Shown piece by piece: positions 14,834-23,283 of a stretch of DNA of 37,602 bases. The translations under genes were made by a program, and so were the position numbers. The first letter of the stretch is position 1. The number at the start of each line of letters is the position of its first letter. The stretch is taken from the NCBI GenBank assembly GCA_903918025.1, contig CAIXCS010000169.1, positions 1-37,602 on the forward strand. The letters are read 5' to 3'. Origin of the DNA: an uncultured Actinomycetes bacterium. Its GTDB lineage: Bacteria; Actinomycetota; Acidimicrobiia; Acidimicrobiales; RAAP-2. The notes beneath the pieces are model-generated. The model had not been told where the DNA came from, did no database searches, and was given only the letters and a program-made list of their open reading frames with translations.

Positions 14834-16669
14834 TCAACGTCCACCATCTTGAGCGGCAATTCTGGCTGCGCTCGACTGAGGAATTGGCAAGCCACCTACG
14901 TGGCCAACTGAACTCGCCAGGACTGGAGTGATGTAGCCAACGATTGAATCGGTTGGCGCATCATGCGAGGTTGTTGGATCAAAGTAGCCAGACTCCCAAA
15001 CCTTCACGTTGTAACCCTGCTTCGTTACGGGTCCAGCATTTCCCGCGACAACGTCGATGAGGTTGCCCTTCACGCCCACCACGAGCCCTACGTGGTTGCC
15101 AACTCCCGTGCCGAGATACCCCCAAACAACGGCATCTCCAGGTTTTGGATTGTTCGTTGCGCCTGCTTTGAACGTGCCCAGTCGTTGCCCAACGTTGACA
15201 AAGGTGAAGCTGTAACCAGTGATCCCCGTCACCGCCGCTCCAGACCTCGCCCAAACCCAATTAGCAAAATCCGAGCACCACTCTTCTGCTGCGGTCCCCT
15301 TTGGACAGTTCGAGGTGCTGCCCCGGCCAAAGTACGCGGTGTAGGGATTGCAATTGGAATTGAGTGGGGTTTCGACAACTCCCGCACCTGTTTGATCGAG
15401 ACTCTTCGCCAACAGCACAATTTTGTTGATGAGCGGGATCGGACCGCCGTCGAGCGCGCCAAACGCAGGTCCAGTTGGCGTCATGGTCACCGTGACATCG
15501 CTGGAGACTCTCTCGCCTGTTCCAACATCAGCGCTGACATTGGTCACCGTTGGACCGTTCGGAGCCGAGAGTGAACCAAGAGCGATCAGGTCACCAGTTG
15601 CCGCCCGGACGACCAGCTCTGGCGAATTGGTCGTGACGAGTGCGGGTATCGATCCCGTTGCGGTCGCCACCTTTGCTTTCGTGAGCGCGCTCGAGAGGTC
15701 TGTCCACGTCCATGGAGAACGGGCTCCTGCTGCAGTGCCAACAACGAGTCCTCCTGCAACCGTGTAGCTCGCAAGGAGCCCGGTTGCCGTGGTGCCAAAT
15801 TGAGGTGGCGCAGTTGGGAGTAGCCCTTGAGGAACCTGAAGGGGGACTTGACGCCAGATGGTGAAGGTTGAGTTGTCATCAAGGAGCAGGATGAGGCGGT
15901 GGCTGGTCGTCTCGACCATCACCGTCTGGACTGCACCATCACCTTGGTAGTTCGCGAGCTGGGGTGAGCCGAGAATTGGAGGGAGCCCGGTAATGAGCGT
16001 GAGATCGTAGGCATTCCACGCATTGCCAGCAAAGCCGTCATTCGCCCACTCAATGACGTGCCCGCTGGCGGTTGTTGCGAAGACTTCAAGCGTTCCGTTT
16101 GGGGCAATGCCAAGTTCAGGCGTGGTGACAATAGGAGGACCGCCGGCAATGACCGATACTGCCGTCAGTTGCCACGGCCCCGTCAGGGCTCCTGGAGTCG
16201 AGAGGAGATCGACCCCTCCGCTGGAGGTTTGGACGGCCATCGCCACACCACCCGTCGGCAGCACGAGTGCGCTCGACACTGACGAGACCGAGGGAAGTGC
16301 CGACAAACCAAGCAGCGGTGCTGCTGGCTTGGCGGCACCGGAGGTGAGTGGGTCAATCGACGCAAGCAAGGTCCCAGTTGGCGAGAGGGCAGTCACGAGG
16401 AGGTCGGTTCGAAGTTGGCTCACCACGACAGGGGAGAGCACCGTCGGAAAGATCCCAGCGGTAGTGAGATCGGTTGTCGTGAGTTTCGCAATCGAGGAAA
16501 GGAGCGGAGGAGCGAAGAGGAGCGCATCAACGCCCAAGGGGGAAGTCTTCGGTCCTGCTTTCGACGCGCCGGCGTTGAGGGAGGCACTAGCCAAGAGGCC
16601 AGCGATCGCAACTGCACTCACTGCCATTCGCCCCAAGGGTGCGAACCATGTCAACTTCGAGCGTTTCAC
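14834..16669 (-). CDS. Secreted CHAP-domain amidase with propeller-like repeats
   Basis: A 611-residue exported protein. The signal peptide is at 1-35 (KRSKLTWFAPLGRMAVSAVAIAGLLASAS..., cleavage near NAGA). Residues about 60-380 hold 50-55-residue repeats of the W-x3-D-[LV] type (WNAYDL at 218-223, WTWTDL at 320-325). The C-terminal third is a CHAP (NlpC/P60-like) domain with nucleophile C465 in EEWCSDFANW, H526 in GVGNHVGLVVG and a likely third polar residue in VAGN (N544). CHAP domains cleave peptidoglycan amide bonds or glutathionylspermidine; export makes cell-wall hydrolysis the best guess. The GTG start has a strong AGGAG site six bases upstream. It diverges from the S53 peptidase gene, whose C-terminus carries the same repeats. 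Confidence 0.88.
   Translation of the reverse strand: MKRSKLTWFAPLGRMAVSAVAIAGLLASASLNAGASKAGPKTSPLGVDALLFAPPLLSSIAKLTTTDLTTAGIFPTVLSPVVVSQLRTDLLVTALSPTGTLLASIDPLTSGAAKPAAPLLGLSALPSVSSVSSALVLPTGGVAMAVQTSSGGVDLLSTPGALTGPWQLTAVSVIAGGPPIVTTPELGIAPNGTLEVFATTASGHVIEWANDGFAGNAWNAYDLTLITGLPPILGSPQLANYQGDGAVQTVMVETTSHRLILLLDDNSTFTIWRQVPLQVPQGLLPTAPPQFGTTATGLLASYTVAGGLVVGTAAGARSPWTWTDLSSALTKAKVATATGSIPALVTTNSPELVVRAATGDLIALGSLSAPNGPTVTNVSADVGTGERVSSDVTVTMTPTGPAFGALDGGPIPLINKIVLLAKSLDQTGAGVVETPLNSNCNPYTAYFGRGSTSNCPKGTAAEEWCSDFANWVWARSGAAVTGITGYSFTFVNVGQRLGTFKAGATNNPKPGDAVVWGYLGTGVGNHVGLVVGVKGNLIDVVAGNAGPVTKQGYNVKVWESGYFDPTTSHDAPTDSIVGYITPVLASSVGHVGGLPIPQSSAARIAAQDGGR
15440..16507 (-). repeat. Propeller-like WxxxD repeat region in the CHAP protein
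   Basis: This encodes residues about 55-410. Repeats begin near residues 63, 166, 218, 272, 320 and 377, spaced 48-57 residues (103 between the first two listed, i.e. two units). Each starts with an aromatic or hydrophobic residue followed four residues later by D-L/V, and several have a later GHxI/GDLI strand. The spacing suggests about seven blades. Confidence 0.55.
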
Positions 16670-16721
16670 CCTCTTCTCCTGAGGTCACCTTGCGTAGGTG
16701 CGTCACGCTTCGCCCACCGAA

Positions 16722-16727
16722 ACGCTA
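16722..16727 (-). promoter_or_regulatory. Candidate -10 (TAGCGT) for the CHAP gene
   Basis: TAGCGT on the minus strand lies directly beside the 18-base palindrome and would give a 5' leader of about 45 bases containing the AGGAG ribosome site. Confidence 0.4.
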
Positions 16728-16745
16728 TCAGCGCTACAGCGCTGA
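16728..16745. promoter_or_regulatory. 8-2-8 palindrome in the divergent secreted-enzyme promoter region
   Basis: TCAGCGCT-AC-AGCGCTGA has perfect 8-bp arms with a 2-base spacer. It sits in the 143-base divergent region between the CHAP and S53 genes and fills the spacer upstream of the CHAP -10. A 2-base loop disfavours an RNA hairpin and favours a dimeric regulator binding site. The regulator is unknown. Confidence 0.55.
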
Positions 16746-16800
16746 AGCAGACCTGAGGACAATGGCAGAAAGCGAGCCCGCCTACCTATCTTCCGTCCCG

Positions 16801-16806
16801 TAGCGT
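16801..16806 (+). promoter_or_regulatory. Candidate -10 (TAGCGT), leaderless start of the S53 gene
   Basis: TAGCGT, then six bases (GGGCAT), then the ATG at 16813. The hexamer is identical to the candidate -10 of the divergent CHAP gene. Confidence 0.55.
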
Positions 16807-16812
16807 GGGCAT

Positions 16813-19800
16813 ATGTTGACTCTTGCGCGACGACTGTTCGCACCCACAGCAGTGGCGTCGGTCGTCCTGCTGAGCTCGAGTTGGCTTGCACCACTTCCTG
16901 GAGGAGCCTCGACCCGTCCAAACCCTCATCGGTTGGTGAAGCTTTCCCCCGCGCCCGAGGTTCCGGCCTCGAGTCATCGTGTTGGACACCTCCCGGCGAA
17001 GAGCATTCTCCATCTTGAAATCGGTTTGCTTCCCCGAGATCCATTGGCGTTCCAAGGGTTTCTCGATGGCGTAACGACGCCTGGAAGTTCTACCTTCCGC
17101 CACTACCTCGCACCAGGTGCCTATGCCTCACGCTTTGGCCCAACCCCTCAATCCATTGCGCCACTCGTCGCTGCACTCCGCTCAAGCGGACTGACCGTCC
17201 GTCCTCTTGATCGAGCACGACAGGACCTCAAGATCACCGGGACGGCGGAGTCCGTCGAGTCGTTCTTTCACACTGGTCTTTCAACGTTTGCCGCAACGAA
17301 TGGCACGACTGACTTCGCCAACACGGGCGCCCTGAGAGTCGAGGCAAGTCTGCGTCCACTCATCGCTGGTGTTACTGGTTTGACGTCATTTGGTCGGAGA
17401 ACACCTGCAGTCGCTCACCGAGCCCCCTTAGCGATCGGCGGGACTGCTCCTTCCTGCACGTCCGCTTCCAGCGTTGAGTCCGCAGGAATGGGAGTGTCGA
17501 CGACGCAACTCGCCTCGGCCTATGGTCTCAATGCGCTCTACGGTGCCCAAGTTCAGGGGGCTGGCGCCACCGTCGCGCTCTATGAGCTCAGCGCCTTTCG
17601 GGCGAGTGACGTCACGACCTACAAGAGTTGCTACGGCATCTCACCAACCGTCAAAATCCAAAATGTTGACGGCGGCCCTACCGCCTACAGCGTGAGGAAT
17701 GCGGCCGACGCAACGGAGCCAACCCTCGACCTCGAAGAGATGTTGTCCATTGCCCCAAAGGCGACCTACATCGTCTACCAAGGCCCCAATGCATCTGCAC
17801 GGACGCCAAGTGGCCCGAACGACGTCCTCGCGACCATTGCGGCTGCTGATGTTGCTCAGGTGGTGTCAACGAGTTGGGGCTTGTGTGAGGCGGACAACCC
17901 TGACCCAGGCGGCGTCGTGTGGGAGCACGCAGTGTTCCAACAAATGGCGGCCCAAGGGCAGACCTTCATTGCAGCCAGTGGCGATAACGGCACTGCGGAC
18001 TGCGCAGGAGATGGTTCCACCCCCGCAAACACCGCGACAAGCGTTGATGACCCGGCAAGCCAGCCCTACGTCACTGGGGTCGGGGCGACCCGTTTGCTCA
18101 GCTCGAGTCCCCTGTCTCAGACAGCTTGGGGATCAGGAACCTTGACCGGCGGAGCTTCGGGTGGTGGCGTTTCCTCAATTTGGAGTCGACCTTCCTGGCA
18201 GCACATGGCATCGAGCGACCCAGTGGTCAACGGGTCGACGCATCGCCTTGTGCCTGACGTTTCGCTCAATGGCGACCCGAAGACTGGCGTCCTCATCTAT
18301 CAGTTTGACCAAGGTGGTTGGTTCTCCGTTGGTGGCACTTCGGCTGCTTCTCCGCTGCTGGCTTCGCTCATTGCGCTCGCGGATTCCAATTGCCGAACCT
18401 CGGTTGGGTTCCTCAATCCGCAGTTGTACGCGCTCAGTGCATCTTCGCCGACTGACTTCTCCGACACGACGACGGGAACGAACTCCGTCGGCACCGGGAC
18501 GACCTATGTTGCGCAACCCGGATACGACTTGGCAACTGGGCTCGGCTCGCCGCTTGGCTCACTGCTTACAGGGCTCTGTACTGCAGCGCCGAGCGCCACG
18601 CAGACCTCGGTACTCGCCGGGAAGCTCACCACAATTACCGCTCACGTTGCGGCCCCAGTCCAGCTCCAAGCGGGCGACACGGTGAGTGTGTCGCTTCCAA
18701 GTGGCGACACCGTGCCGACCAACAGTGCGTCGGTGACGGCCACCGCGAATGGATCGACGGGTCCGATTTCGCTGGTTGGAAGCTCGGTGGGGTCCCTCTC
18801 AACGACACGCAATACCTATTCATTCACCGTGCACAGCGCCCTCGCCGCTGGTTCGCTTCTGGCCTTCACCCTGACGAATGTCCTCAACCGAGTCACGCAG
18901 ACTCCAGCAGCGATGGTCGTGAGTTCAAGTGTCACCTCGTGGATCAACCAAGCAGCGCAACTCCCTGCCCTGACGCCGGTGAGCAAAGGATGGACCTCAA
19001 GTGACCTGACCGCCACGCAGAAGGCGCTCCGTTCGAGCACCTCGGCTGGCGACCTCAGTGGTTCCCAGGTTGGAACATCGCTTGCAACGCTCGTGAACGC
19101 GAAACTCGTCATTGCCAGCGGTTCCACGCCCAACTTGGTTGCAACGACCGTTGCAACAGCTTCCCTGCCGACTGCTTCCGGCAAGTTGGTTGGCCAAGTT
19201 GCCATCGGAAAACTCGATTCCCAGCTCGTCGTCGCCACGACCACGACGACGGGGCACCTCATCGTGACGCACGGGGCCACGGCAAAAGCGAAGTGGAGTC
19301 CGGTTGACGTCACCACCGCGCTCAGCCTTCCCGAAACTGCCTCGGGGGCTTGCCTCTCGATTGCAAAGCCGCTCACTACGTCGATCGCCGTTGGGGCAGT
19401 CCGACTCAGCAATGGCCACCTACTCCAGTTCCAGGCAACGTCATCTGCGGCGAAAGCGTTCACCGTGACGGATCTCACTGCGCTCACCGGAGCCACCTTG
19501 TCCGGGACACCAAGCTGTCGGTCAAGCGGTGGGACCTTTGTAGTGGCGTACCGAGCTGACTCTGGCGACTTGATGGTGCTCACCTCGAGTGTGACGAGCG
19601 CAGCAGCATCGCTTGTCGACGTCACCTCGACTTCGGGCGCTTCATCCCTTGCAAACAGCCCCATTGGCTTGCTGATCCAAAATGGCCAGGTGCTGGTGTC
19701 CTCGGTGTCAACCGACGGCAAGATCTACCTTTCGACTTCTGTGGTCGGTTCATCACTGTGGACCGCCACCAACTTGAGCGCTGCACAAGGTCTGCCCAGC

Positions 19801-20055
19801 GGACTCACGAATCCTGTGCTTGCAGCAACCGGCGCCAAGACTGACCTCTTCGCCGTTGATACCTCCAATCATCTGGTTCTCGTTACCAACAATGGCTCTG
19901 GCGGAACGTGGAATGCCTATGACCTCTCGGCCGCCTACAACCTCGGTTTCGCCGGAAGCGGTCTCAAGGCAGCGGTTGCGGGCACGGCCGTTTCCGTTTC
20001 GTGGCTAACTGCGAGCCACCACCTCGGTGTCGCCGCTTCCTCAACGGCCATCTAA
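16813..20055 (+). CDS. Secreted S53 (sedolisin/kumamolisin-type) peptidase with C-terminal propeller-like repeats
   Basis: A 1080-residue exported endopeptidase. In order: signal peptide (1-33); pro-domain (about 60-195, Pro-kumamolisin-like, with FRHYLAPGAYASRFGPT); S53 catalytic domain (about 205-590); an Ig-like/low-complexity linker (about 592-715); and a propeller-like repeat module (720-1080). The sedolisin catalytic set is complete: E302 and D306 in ATEPTLDLEE, oxyanion D391 in ASGDNG, and S510 in GGTSAASP. The calcium site is present (DFSDTTTGTN and GYDLATGLGSP). Family members are acid-active serine-carboxyl peptidases, suggesting activity in an acidic surrounding. Most bacterial sedolisins end near 600 residues, so the extra 490 residues are unusual. 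It runs head-to-tail into the next secreted protein with no gap. Confidence 0.93.
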   Translation: MLTLARRLFAPTAVASVVLLSSSWLAPLPGGASTRPNPHRLVKLSPAPEVPASSHRVGHLPAKSILHLEIGLLPRDPLAFQGFLDGVTTPGSSTFRHYLAPGAYASRFGPTPQSIAPLVAALRSSGLTVRPLDRARQDLKITGTAESVESFFHTGLSTFAATNGTTDFANTGALRVEASLRPLIAGVTGLTSFGRRTPAVAHRAPLAIGGTAPSCTSASSVESAGMGVSTTQLASAYGLNALYGAQVQGAGATVALYELSAFRASDVTTYKSCYGISPTVKIQNVDGGPTAYSVRNAADATEPTLDLEEMLSIAPKATYIVYQGPNASARTPSGPNDVLATIAAADVAQVVSTSWGLCEADNPDPGGVVWEHAVFQQMAAQGQTFIAASGDNGTADCAGDGSTPANTATSVDDPASQPYVTGVGATRLLSSSPLSQTAWGSGTLTGGASGGGVSSIWSRPSWQHMASSDPVVNGSTHRLVPDVSLNGDPKTGVLIYQFDQGGWFSVGGTSAASPLLASLIALADSNCRTSVGFLNPQLYALSASSPTDFSDTTTGTNSVGTGTTYVAQPGYDLATGLGSPLGSLLTGLCTAAPSATQTSVLAGKLTTITAHVAAPVQLQAGDTVSVSLPSGDTVPTNSASVTATANGSTGPISLVGSSVGSLSTTRNTYSFTVHSALAAGSLLAFTLTNVLNRVTQTPAAMVVSSSVTSWINQAAQLPALTPVSKGWTSSDLTATQKALRSSTSAGDLSGSQVGTSLATLVNAKLVIASGSTPNLVATTVATASLPTASGKLVGQVAIGKLDSQLVVATTTTTGHLIVTHGATAKAKWSPVDVTTALSLPETASGACLSIAKPLTTSIAVGAVRLSNGHLLQFQATSSAAKAFTVTDLTALTGATLSGTPSCRSSGGTFVVAYRADSGDLMVLTSSVTSAAASLVDVTSTSGASSLANSPIGLLIQNGQVLVSSVSTDGKIYLSTSVVGSSLWTATNLSAAQGLPSGLTNPVLAATGAKTDLFAVDTSNHLVLVTNNGSGGTWNAYDLSAAYNLGFAGSGLKAAVAGTAVSVSWLTASHHLGVAASSTAI
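18970..20052 (+). repeat. Propeller-like WxxxDL repeat region in the S53 peptidase
   Basis: This encodes residues 720-1080. Repeat starts are WTSSDL (727), WSPVDV (828), FTVTDL (883), SLVDV (about 931), WTATNL (983) and WNAYDL (1033), spaced 48-55 residues, with one weak unit near 777. That gives about seven units. WNAYDLS here matches WNAYDLT in the CHAP protein. Confidence 0.6.
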
Positions 20056-20070
20056 TTGGTTGACCTGTCC

Positions 20071-23000
20071 ATGCCCGTCAGCACGGTGAAGTCGCAGCGC
20101 CAACGCGGAGGCTCTCGTTGGCGCTCCCTCGCGCGTCCCGTTCGTCTCGTCAGTGCTGCAGCGGCGATTCTTGCCCTCATCGCAACCGGCTCAGCTACCG
20201 CAACCGAACGCGCAAAGGCCACGCCAGCAATCGTCACTCCCCCAGGAAATCTCTGGTCATTTTCTGCACCACTTGGAACGGTTGCCAATTGGACAACGGT
20301 TGATACGACCCTTGGCGCAGGCTTGCCCACCTTGGTTGAGCCTCCATCTGTCATCGACAATGGCGGAACAGTGCTCGCAGCGGGACTCGGTGCCAATGGT
20401 CAAGTCCTCATGTTCAGCGATGCCAGCCCAGGGACGAACTCGTGGTCCACCACCAACCTCACTGGGCTTCTTGGGTTGACCTCCACCATTACCCCGGCAA
20501 TCGCTCTTGATCCCGATGGCATTCTCGAAGTCGTCACTCGTGCAGCGAACAGTCATCTCATCCTGACGACGCAGCGATTTGACGGAAGAGCGTCGTGGCA
20601 GAGCGTTGATGTGACCTCAGCGTCAGGTGGGCCACTACTCATTGGCAAACCAGTGGTCTCGGTGACGAGCAATGGGACCTCCATTTTCGGGCGCACTGCC
20701 GCCGGTCATCTCATGCAATTTCTCGATACGCCTTCTGCGACGAGAAGTTGGCAGGCGCTCGATGTCACGGCACTCGCTGGCGGACCCGTCCTTACCTCAG
20801 ACCCTGCGGTCGACGAAGACCCAACCTCAACCCAGCATCACGTCACCGCACTCGGACCTCTTGGCTCAATTCTTGAATACGCCGATGACAACGCGACGCT
20901 TCGATTTTGGAGCTTTCGGAGTTTCCCGGTCCCCTCTCCTGTCGTTGGTAGTCCAGTCATTGGCGACACCGCTTCGATCACCACGATCGTTGCCACCCTT
21001 GCCAACCATCACCTTCTTGCGCTCAGCGCTCAACTCAACACGCCAGCATCACTGTGGACCTCAACTGATCTCTCGACGAGCGCAACCGGGGGAACGACGG
21101 TAACGGGACGGCCAGTGATTGCCACGAGCGGCGGCCATGTCGAGCTCGTCACGAGAGGCAATTACTCGGACTACGTGAGTTTTGATGCAGACGTGAGAAC
21201 GTCGCCACCGACCTGGCGAACACTTGACGTGAAGGCATCTGCTGCCTTCTCCCCGGCCAGTACGGCGCTCTCGGGTGCAAGTGTTGGAGGACAGTTCATC
21301 TTCTTCGCCACCGGGGCGATGTTCACCTCAACCTCTGGAACAGGTCTCTATGCGGTTCCACAGAATGCAACGGCGAAGGCGCTGAACGATGGTTGGCCCG
21401 TCCTTGGTGACACCGGCGCGCTTGGAACCCCGGGTGCGCCCTACACGGGCCTGGCAAACACCGGGCAAGATCTCTTAACCGGCAAGGCGATTGCGGCCAG
21501 TGGTCGACCCACCACATGGCTCAGCTTTTGGACGGTGTCGGGTCCTCCAACCTCCGCCTCGGCAACGGCAGTCTCATGTCGAGTGACCTGTGCAACCGTC
21601 GGCAACTACACCGATCTCAAGGGCTCGACGCTTCCGTACATGGTCATCAGCGGAATAGGCGACCGCGGAACTGCCCTGTCTCTTCCCGTTCCTTCTGGAG
21701 CGCCGACGGACCCGAGCGCAGATGTTCGTGGGGTCTCCTGCGGCGCACAGGGAAGTTGCTCGGTAGTTGGCAGCGTGCTTGGGACCGGTGGCCAGCGCAT
21801 GCCGCTGTTTGTCACGACAACCGGGCAGGTGGCAACGCCCCGGGCAGTGACGTTGCCCGCTGGTGCCGCCGCAAGCGGTCCTTCGGGACTTACCGCAGTC
21901 AGCTGTACTTCCTCCGCTCTTTGTGTTGCGGTTGGGACCTACACCGACACGGTCGGCCGGACGCAGGCAATGGCCGTCATCTCGCGAGATGGCCTCCCAG
22001 GAACTGCTCGTCAGCTGGCTGGGCCAACCGGTGCCTCCACCAATCCGCACACCAGCCCAAATGGACTCGACTGCACCGTTGCCCTCACCTGTGTGGCGGT
22101 GGGATCGTTTGTCGACTCCGGAGCGAGAACCCGGCCATTCGTGGCGTTCTTGAACGGTGACACGGCAACGTCTGTGCTCCCAGGCACCCTTCCGGCTGGC
22201 GCGGCCGCAAATCCCCTCGCCAGCCTCTCGGGGATTTCCTGTGGCGCGGCGGCATGTACTGCGGTTGGCCAAGTTCGCCTTGCCACTGGACTGACGCAGT
22301 CAATGTGGACGTCGCTCAGTGGCTCGGGCGTCGGTGCGACCACCCTGATCACGGCGCCGCTGTTGAGTGCTGCAAATCCGCTCGTCACGCTTCATGGGGT
22401 GAGTTGCATCACAACGACCTGCACCGCAGTCGGCAGTGCCCTCGACGCACATGGACACCATCTGCCAATCACGGTCAGCATTGTTGGCGGTGAGGCTCGA
22501 CGTGCCAGTTTCACCGGAGTACCTGCAGGCGGAGCGGCCGATCCACTCTCGACACTCTCTGGTGTCTCCTGCACCTCGGCGACGCTCTGTCGAGCAGCAG
22601 GGCCCTACACGAATGGCAATGGGACCCAACTCCCCTTCGTGCTCGCTGCCGCAAGTCTGAACCCGGTCGCGAGCCTCGGAGCCCTTCCCTCAACTTCCGG
22701 TGCGGCAAACCCTCCAGCTGCCTTCTACCAAGCGAGTCTCTTGGCCGGGCGAGCTGTTGGAACCATCCTCGCCAGCTATCCAAAGCAAGGGCTCGCCCTT
22801 CAACCACAATTCGTCATCTTTGACCCTGAGGGCTATCCCGACAATCACTCGGGCCTCGATGGGCCACCGGGGGCACTCTCCTCAGCAAAGTGGGCGTCAG
22901 CACTGCAAGGTTGGGCCGATGGACTGCATCAACTCAATCCCGGAACCCATGTTGGTGTGTACCTCGATCAATATGAGTACGCGACCTACGGCATTGCCCA

Positions 23001-23283
23001 ACTCTCGCTTCCGGCATTCTTGGCCGTGGCGTGGTCGGTCAAGTACACGGCAAATGCTCAAACCGGCAAACTCACGATCACCGCACCACCTGTGCCGCCG
23101 AAGAAGTTGGTCTCAGGACCCAATATCGCAGGCGTCATCTCGTTCAATGACTTCTGCCCGTCAGAGTGGTCAAAGGCGGGTGACTTTGCCAACCAGGTCT
23201 CGATGTTTGGCAAGGCGCCGTGGAATGGCACGTACAACACCTTGCAGTTCATTCAAGCGACGCAATACTGCCCGCCTCGCTAG
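20071..23283 (+). CDS. Secreted multidomain protein: WxxxD repeats, Cys-pair repeats and a glycosidase-like C-terminal domain
   Basis: A 1070-residue exported protein from the ATG at 20071. A TTG at 20056, directly after the S53 stop, is an alternative start. The signal peptide has a twin-arginine-poor, basic n-region and the core LVSAAAAILALIATGSATA. Residues 65-390 hold tryptophan-led repeats with W at 74, 125, 176, 227, 280, 329 and 382. Residues 500-865 hold seven Cys-pair repeats. Residues about 910-1070 resemble GH25/DUF1906-like TIM-barrel glycosidases: FVIFDPEGYPD (D918, E920), then GWADGLHQLNPGTHVGVYLDQYEY and a final NTLQFIQATQYC. If active it would cut a glycan such as peptidoglycan; this fold call is tentative and the domain may be partial. 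It probably shares a transcript with the S53 gene. Its 3' end is three bases from the lhr stop. Confidence 0.78.
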   Translation: MPVSTVKSQRQRGGSRWRSLARPVRLVSAAAAILALIATGSATATERAKATPAIVTPPGNLWSFSAPLGTVANWTTVDTTLGAGLPTLVEPPSVIDNGGTVLAAGLGANGQVLMFSDASPGTNSWSTTNLTGLLGLTSTITPAIALDPDGILEVVTRAANSHLILTTQRFDGRASWQSVDVTSASGGPLLIGKPVVSVTSNGTSIFGRTAAGHLMQFLDTPSATRSWQALDVTALAGGPVLTSDPAVDEDPTSTQHHVTALGPLGSILEYADDNATLRFWSFRSFPVPSPVVGSPVIGDTASITTIVATLANHHLLALSAQLNTPASLWTSTDLSTSATGGTTVTGRPVIATSGGHVELVTRGNYSDYVSFDADVRTSPPTWRTLDVKASAAFSPASTALSGASVGGQFIFFATGAMFTSTSGTGLYAVPQNATAKALNDGWPVLGDTGALGTPGAPYTGLANTGQDLLTGKAIAASGRPTTWLSFWTVSGPPTSASATAVSCRVTCATVGNYTDLKGSTLPYMVISGIGDRGTALSLPVPSGAPTDPSADVRGVSCGAQGSCSVVGSVLGTGGQRMPLFVTTTGQVATPRAVTLPAGAAASGPSGLTAVSCTSSALCVAVGTYTDTVGRTQAMAVISRDGLPGTARQLAGPTGASTNPHTSPNGLDCTVALTCVAVGSFVDSGARTRPFVAFLNGDTATSVLPGTLPAGAAANPLASLSGISCGAAACTAVGQVRLATGLTQSMWTSLSGSGVGATTLITAPLLSAANPLVTLHGVSCITTTCTAVGSALDAHGHHLPITVSIVGGEARRASFTGVPAGGAADPLSTLSGVSCTSATLCRAAGPYTNGNGTQLPFVLAAASLNPVASLGALPSTSGAANPPAAFYQASLLAGRAVGTILASYPKQGLALQPQFVIFDPEGYPDNHSGLDGPPGALSSAKWASALQGWADGLHQLNPGTHVGVYLDQYEYATYGIAQLSLPAFLAVAWSVKYTANAQTGKLTITAPPVPPKKLVSGPNIAGVISFNDFCPSEWSKAGDFANQVSMFGKAPWNGTYNTLQFIQATQYCPPR
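20263..21240 (+). repeat. Seven-unit WxxxD repeat region, about 51 residues per unit
   Basis: Tryptophans leading each unit are at residues 74, 125, 176, 227, 280, 329 and 382, spaced 51, 51, 51, 53, 49 and 53. Units read W-x3-[DN]-[LV]-[TS], then a P-V/A-I strand and a GHL/SHLIL strand. The regularity and number fit a seven-bladed beta-propeller. Confidence 0.7.
21562..22659 (+). repeat. Seven Cys-pair repeats, about 55 residues per unit
   Basis: The first cysteine of each pair is at residues 503, 557, 612, 668, 724, 779 and 834 (period 54-56). The consensus is PAGAAANP-x4-L-x-GVSC-x4to6-C-x-AVGxYxD-x2-G-x4-P. Each pair probably forms a small disulfide inside a blade. The unit is repeated in protein but diverged in DNA. 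Confidence 0.75.

What the first reader, a model, noticed from the sequence alone, without database searches (positions are those of the whole stretch)
14834..23283. Three adjacent secreted proteins share one propeller-like module fused to three different effector domains
Seen: in each protein, units of about 51 residues begin with W/F-x3-[DN]-[LV]-[TS] (W at 74, 125, 176, 227, 280, 329 and 382 in the third protein; 727, 828, 883, 983 and 1033 in the peptidase; 166, 218 and 320 in the CHAP protein), and WNAYDL occurs in two of them. Established: CHAP domains cleave peptidoglycan amides, S53 enzymes are acid-active peptidases, and seven regular units fit beta-propellers. Inference: the common module targets or scaffolds three enzymes on one surface, forming an exported degradation kit (prey cell walls, own wall remodelling or a polymer). 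I know of no named system with this layout.
Basis: partly seen in the sequence, partly recalled or inferred. Interest (0 to 1): 0.85.

Follow-up and report, generated by a model that had tools for sequence, protein, structure and literature searches.

The report
Lectin-like propellers on linked secreted hydrolases
Three neighbouring genes of a small freshwater actinobacterium make apparently exported proteins that share one propeller-shaped domain related to bacterial sugar-binding lectins, joined to a wall-cutting domain, an acid protease and an uncharacterised domain; relatives keep these genes together, which suggests one cell-surface degradation set whose target is unknown.

Summary
Three adjacent ORFs (CHAP 14834-16669 -, S53 16813-20055 +, 'P3' 20056-23283 +) each carry a ~360-aa module with a ~51-aa repeat. 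Profile comparisons show the modules are homologous to one another and to the seven-bladed PLL/PHL lectins of Photorhabdus. The PLL tryptophan I could test is missing from the repeats, so the module is PLL-like but not a proven lectin.

The locus is conserved. CHAP<- S53-> P3-> occurs in all 5 genomes of the genus and in one other genus. A third genus pairs S53 with P3 (18 of 19 assessable genomes). Two genera pair module-bearing CHAP with P3. One further module sits on a polysaccharide deacetylase.

P3's effector is an orphan domain, found only in this family and split by a second propeller-like insert. I infer a glycosidase-like barrel from motifs; no profile search supports it.

Best reading: an exported, co-targeted wall or glycan degradation set. 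Target unknown. New variant of a known kind.

The parts
14834..16669 (-). CHAP protein, 611 aa, signal-peptide-like N terminus (by eye)
   Evidence: ORF; orthologues
15476..16528 (-). PLL-like propeller module of the CHAP protein (aa 48-398)
   Evidence: module profile 2e-99; PLL/PHL matches
14906..15436 (-). CHAP catalytic domain (aa 412-588), Cys465 and His526 invariant
   Evidence: PF05257 29.0 bits, cut-off 26; alignment
16667..16716 (-). Conserved element in the CHAP 5' leader: TGGGCGRAGC, variable hairpin, ACCTCAGGAGAAGAGG just before the GTG start
   Evidence: alignments; pattern found once in each of the six three-gene genomes
16722..16727 (-). TAGCGT, a possible -10 box, TAG conserved in six genomes
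   Evidence: alignment; reading as a -10 is inference
16813..20055 (+). S53 (kumamolisin-like) peptidase, 1080 aa, signal-peptide-like N terminus (by eye)
   Evidence: ORF; orthologues
16972..18603 (+). Pro-kumamolisin activation domain and S53 catalytic domain (aa 54-597)
   Evidence: PF09286 1e-20; kumamolisin 1t1e 8e-46; E302, D306, D391, S510 invariant
18958..20052 (+). PLL-like propeller module of the S53 protein (aa 716-1080)
   Evidence: hhalign to P3 and CHAP modules 4e-22 and 5e-22
20056..23283 (+). P3, 1075 aa; likely start is the ATG at 20071
20248..21300 (+). PLL-like propeller module of P3 (aa 65-415)
   Evidence: module profile 8e-119; profile match to PLL2
21289..21570 (+). P3 orphan C-terminal domain, first piece (aa 412-505)
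   Evidence: profile A4 2e-30; continuous with the second piece in relatives
21574..22692 (+). Inserted second propeller-like repeat domain (aa 507-879)
   Evidence: repeat period ~55.5; four-stranded blades in the model, pLDDT up to 84; propeller fold matches
22696..23277 (+). P3 orphan C-terminal domain, second piece (aa 881-1074), with DPEGYPD and DQYEY motifs
   Evidence: profile A4 7e-51; no Pfam, NCBIfam or PDB match

Best explanation
The locus encodes a small exported set of hydrolases sharing one divergent PLL-like seven-bladed propeller. Shown: the three modules are homologous and related to PLL/PHL lectins; the CHAP and S53 domains keep their expected catalytic residues; S53, CHAP and the orphan P3 domain are repeatedly neighbours, with or without the module. 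Inferred: the proteins are secreted, and the propeller holds each enzyme on the same surface or polymer, probably a glycan of a cell envelope or matrix. There CHAP would cut peptidoglycan peptide or amide bonds, the P3 domain (possibly a glycosidase-like barrel with acids at DPEG and QYEY) would cut a sugar chain, and the S53 enzyme, acid-active by family, would remove surface protein. CHAP and the probable S53-P3 operon start from one divergent intergenic region, the CHAP message carrying a conserved leader.
For: Homology of the modules and relation to PLL/PHL. Catalytic residues invariant. Neighbourhoods: three genes in 6 of 6 genomes of two genera; S53 next to P3 in 18 of 19 assessable g10 genomes; CHAP next to P3 in g18, in two g7 genomes and in g14. 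One further module on a polysaccharide deacetylase. A different S53 paralogue of the same genome has no such tail, so the tail is not a general S53 feature. The trio's modules form three separate clades in the genus and g19, so they have long been kept.
Against: No binding or activity is known. The PLL tryptophan nine residues before the motif Trp is W in none of 119 repeats, so PLL-type sugar binding may be lost. The P3 C-terminal domain matches no enzyme family. In g8/g13 the genes are not linked in the assemblies, and g14 keeps CHAP-P3 without the module. Structure models are poor (mean pLDDT 43.6 and 38.1).
Confidence: 0.55

Rival explanations
1. The set serves the cell's own envelope: CHAP and P3 remodel or mature the cell's own wall or surface layer, and S53 processes exported surface proteins, perhaps including its neighbours. 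The propellers keep them on the cell surface.
For: CHAP enzymes often act on the producer's own wall (general knowledge). The set is inherited vertically within a few genera and no relative was found in viral contigs or, for P3, on plasmids.
Against: The locus is absent from most sampled genera of the family, so it is not part of a core wall machinery. Acid-active S53 enzymes are mostly secreted digestive proteases (general knowledge).
Confidence: 0.3
2. The module is a structural scaffold: the propellers bind each other or another protein, not a glycan, and assemble the enzymes into one complex.
For: Loss of the tested PLL tryptophan and strong divergence of the modules between the three proteins (about 20% identity).
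Against: The closest solved relatives are lectins, and the recurrent partners act on wall or polysaccharide. P3 C-terminal domains also occur behind D-mannose-lectin-like or CBM_4_9 domains.
Confidence: 0.25
3. A repeat domain was copied between neighbouring genes by recombination, without functional coupling of the proteins.
For: In g8/g13 the CHAP and P3 modules form one clade (100/99), as duplication or gene conversion would give.
Against: In the window's genus and g19 the three module types are separate clades (100/99, 96/98, 100/99) and are retained. S53-P3 and CHAP-P3 adjacency exists also where the partner lacks the module.
Confidence: 0.12

Closest known systems
PLL/PHL seven-bladed propeller lectins of Photorhabdus (DUF346, PropLec7A; PMC12203525, PMC7778903)
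   Same: Seven units of about 50 aa, sequence homology (3e-19 with the module profile), best fold matches of the CHAP model.
   Different: PLLs are free-standing lectins; here the propeller is fused to hydrolases. Below the DUF346 Pfam cut-off. A Trp of PLL blades, nine residues before the motif Trp, is absent in 119 repeats.
Kumamolisin / sedolisin (S53)
   Same: Pro-domain and catalytic domain with conserved Glu, Asp, Asp, Ser.
   Different: A linker and a PLL-like propeller of about 365 aa follow the catalytic domain.
CHAP peptidoglycan hydrolases and endolysins
   Same: CHAP domain with Cys and His; weak endolysin-family matches.
   Different: N-terminal PLL-like propeller instead of a usual wall-binding domain; conserved QDGG[RK] C terminus.
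Rv2525c-like and GH25 glycosidase-like barrels
   Same: By eye only: a D-x-E motif followed by an aromatic and a GW-containing helix in the same order.
   Different: No significant profile match (prob 0.2-0.3%, against 48% for the Rv2525c-GH25 positive control).

Membership tests
PLL lectin family (DUF346, PropLec7A) | Sequence homology to PLL/PHL | tested here: met
   Module profile vs PDB: 3e-19 to 3e-12 for PLL/PHL. The S53 tail alone has no direct PDB match, only through the other modules.
PLL lectin family (DUF346, PropLec7A) | Seven four-stranded blades | tested here: inconclusive
   Lengths and ~51-aa period fit seven; the CHAP model shows four-stranded blades at pLDDT ~70 for about four of them; the P3 module was not modelled with confidence.
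PLL lectin family (DUF346, PropLec7A) | Pfam DUF346 at its gathering score | tested here: not met
   No DUF346 hit for the window proteins at E <= 1; relatives reach 14-16 bits, cut-off 22.
PLL lectin family (DUF346, PropLec7A) | Conserved tryptophans of the PLL blades (two stack on the sugar in hydrophobic sites) | tested here: not met
   The position aligned to the PLL Trp nine residues before the motif Trp is W in 0 of 119 repeats. Which PLL Trp is which in the site was not traced residue by residue.
PLL lectin family (DUF346, PropLec7A) | Binding of fucose or O-methylated sugars | not testable with these tools
   Needs a binding assay.
S53 sedolisin/kumamolisin | Pro-domain plus catalytic domain with Glu, Asp, Asp, Ser | tested here: met
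   PF09286, kumamolisin match, invariant E302, D306, D391, S510.
CHAP domain (PF05257) | Score over the Pfam cut-off and conserved Cys and His | tested here: met
   29.0 bits vs 26; C465 and H526 invariant in 14 proteins.
Rv2525c-like (PF08924), for the P3 C-terminal domain | Detectable profile match | tested here: not met
   No Pfam hit in 15 members, no PF08924 hit in G000-G004 or G022, hhalign prob 0.2%.
GH25 (PF01183), for the P3 C-terminal domain | Detectable profile match | tested here: not met
   hhalign prob 0.3%; no hit in G000.

The most novel reading that the evidence does not exclude
A lineage-specific targeting domain, a PLL-like propeller rebuilt to bind a wall or surface polymer not known to be bound by PLLs, directs a recurring trio of exported activities (peptidoglycan peptidase or amidase, acid protease, and a new glycosidase-like family split by a second propeller) to one substrate, with expression tuned by a new short RNA leader on the CHAP message.
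Probability: 0.25. Interest if true: 0.7.

Novelty: new variant of a known kind. Interest (0 to 1): 0.5.

Why it matters
If right, it gives a testable link between a lectin fold known from insect pathogens and wall- or polymer-degrading enzymes in uncultured freshwater actinobacteria. It defines an orphan domain family (the P3 C-terminal domain) with a likely enzymatic role, and adds a locus-specific 5' leader as a candidate regulatory element. It could also offer a binding domain of new specificity.

Tried and rejected
P3 C-terminal domain as Rv2525c/DUF1906 or GH25: rejected as a membership claim, kept only as a motif resemblance. Phage link: two profile scans of viral contigs found no relative. 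Plasmid carriage: no tblastn match for P3. Defence system: no PADLOC hit. Known riboswitch or leader: no Rfam family at gathering score, only chance-level hits. Leader structure: six sequences give 4 of 16 pairs with double changes but almost no covariation energy, and single sequences do not fold clearly better than shuffles, so RNA structure is suggestive only. Direct PDB match of the S53 tail: none, hence the profile-profile route. A first attempt to extract Rv2525c homologues took wrong reading frames and was redone. A fuzzy-match script for the leader timed out and was replaced by a Hamming scan and genome pattern searches.

Full report
WHAT WAS CHECKED. The window is contig C169 of a 2.19-Mb draft genome. 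The nearest named records are MAGs titled 'uncultured actinobacterium'. The three ORFs are present and open. The motif is far above the shuffled expectation, and a ~51-residue period is visible in all three modules, most clearly in P3.

ONE MODULE, AND WHAT IT IS. BLASTP already links the modules (about 1e-7 to 1e-13). Profile-profile comparison makes this firm: P3 vs CHAP E 6e-57, S53 tail vs P3 4e-22, S53 tail vs CHAP 5e-22, with register-shifted alternatives as expected of repeats; the control of the S53 tail against the P3 C-terminal domain gives 0.56. With only the orthologues of the window's genus and g19 the values are weaker but still clear (4e-25, 1e-14, 3e-13). A profile of the CHAP and P3 modules finds the Photorhabdus PLL and PHL lectins in the PDB at 3e-19 to 3e-12, far ahead of everything else. 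The low-confidence CHAP model, whose propeller region (about aa 127-335) is mostly at pLDDT 50-80, has PHL and PLL as its best Foldseek matches (E 4e-11) and VIA Z of 16-17, tied with sialidases and other propellers. The P3 model says nothing about its N-terminal module (pLDDT about 20-33), so there the case rests on sequence. The S53 tail has no direct PDB match.

IS IT A LECTIN? PLL lectins bind fucose and O-methylated sugars in sites between blades, with two conserved tryptophans stacking on the sugar in the hydrophobic site (PMC12203525). DUF346 is regarded as a PLL-like lectin (PropLec7A; PMC7778903). In the HMMER alignment the PLL tryptophan nine residues before the motif Trp faces mostly V, T, A, I, S or G in the new modules: none of 119 repeats has W there, while Tyr is the commonest residue at W+3. 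DUF346 scores of relatives stay below the Pfam cut-off. I therefore call the module PLL-like and do not file it as a PLL lectin.

THE EFFECTORS. CHAP: Pfam cut-off passed, Cys465 and His526 invariant in 14 proteins. S53: pro-domain, kumamolisin match, and the expected Glu302, Asp306, Asp391 and Ser510 invariant in six orthologues (the assignment rests on my knowledge of kumamolisin). P3: residues 412-505 and 881-1074 form one domain that is continuous in P3 of several other genera, and 507-879 is an insert. The insert has ~55.5-residue repeats, is modelled as four-stranded blades at pLDDT up to 84, and has propellers as fold matches. Similar SCxxxxCxAVG repeats occur in separate proteins of the same genome. 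The P3 C-terminal domain itself matches nothing in Pfam or the PDB and nothing meaningful in NCBIfam; among 296 genomes sampled across the phylum only members of this family have it. Its alternating strand and helix pattern and conserved acids (D923 and E925 in DPEGYPD; E974 in DQYEY) suggest to me a (beta/alpha)8 glycosidase-like fold. That is inference: profile comparisons with the Rv2525c-like and GH25 families fail, while the positive control between those two families gives 48%.

NEIGHBOURHOOD. In genomes G000-G004 (one genus) and G022 (another genus) the order is CHAP<- S53-> P3->; in G003 P3 is cut by a contig end. In genus g10 an S53 gene directly precedes P3 in 18 of 19 assessable genomes (L180 lacks it, L181 is cut off by the contig end). 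Some of those S53 proteins also have a divergent propeller-like tail (profile prob 96%, E 3e-9), others a different tail. In g18 (2 of 2 genomes) and in two g7 genomes CHAP and P3 are divergent neighbours without S53; in g14 (2 of 2) they are neighbours although neither has a detectable module. In g8 and g13 the genes were found on separate contigs. At E <= 1e-12 the module occurs in 39 of 100 genomes of the family, in 7 of 21 genera. In the hits I assigned it is on P3-type, CHAP or S53 proteins, plus one polysaccharide deacetylase (L128); two partial ORFs (L164, L165) were not assigned. Across the phylum it is rare at E <= 1e-8 (5 of 296 genomes, 4 of them in this family). These counts depend on a model built from this family.

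HISTORY OF THE MODULE. In a maximum-likelihood tree the S53, CHAP and P3 modules of the window's genus and g19 form three separate clades (100/99, 96/98, 100/99), so the trio predates the split of those genera. In g8/g13 the CHAP and P3 modules group together (100/99), which suggests later duplication or gene conversion there. Branches are long and the deep order is not resolved.

A CONSERVED LEADER. The CHAP-S53 intergenic region holds a block of about 50 nt just upstream of the CHAP start that is nearly identical in four congeners whose CHAP proteins are 54-84% identical to the window's. Six genomes share TGGGCGRAGC, a stretch that can form a hairpin of changing sequence, and ACCTCAGGAGAAGAGG, in which CCTC/GAGG can enclose the Shine-Dalgarno. 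The pattern is found once in each of the six three-gene genomes, at this place, and in one other of 100 family genomes. No Rfam family matches. The RNA structure is an idea from six sequences, not a demonstrated one.

MECHANISM AND RIVALS. The recurrent grouping of S53, CHAP and the P3 domain, partly independent of the module, is the best evidence for a joint task. The shared propeller suggests that the task is done at one place. That this place is a glycan of a cell envelope or matrix is inference from the fold's relatives and from the enzyme partners. Own-wall remodelling, a purely structural scaffold, and copying of a repeat domain between neighbours remain open and are set out as rivals. 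No paper on this combination turned up in the searches made, which cover open-licence papers only.

Noticed in passing
window 16667-16716 (-); also L123, L124, L125, L126, L103: A ~50-nt element in the CHAP 5' leader, nearly identical in four congeners and recognisable in all six three-gene genomes, with a possible SD-enclosing hairpin and no Rfam match. One copy per genome.
   Followed up: partly
C terminus of the CHAP proteins (window 14837-14875 -; alignment A2): Module-bearing CHAP proteins of five genera end in a conserved ...IAxQDGG[RK] (QDxGR in g7) at the very C terminus, after a variable linker; no explanation found.
   Followed up: no
window 21574-22692 (+); L235, L236: A second propeller-like domain is inserted inside the P3 C-terminal domain in the window's genus and g19; similar SCxxxxCxAVG repeat proteins are encoded separately in the genome.
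   Followed up: partly
L128 5861-7720 (-): The same module fused to a polysaccharide deacetylase (PF01522) in G055.
   Followed up: partly
L196 and L197 (other genera of the family): Other exported repeat proteins (DGGIFSFGDAxFYGS repeats) fused to a weakly Rv2525c-like domain, a similar layout built from different parts.
   Followed up: no
L108, L131, L132: The P3 C-terminal domain also occurs behind other N-terminal parts, including D-mannose-lectin-like (PF01453) and CBM_4_9 domains.
   Followed up: no
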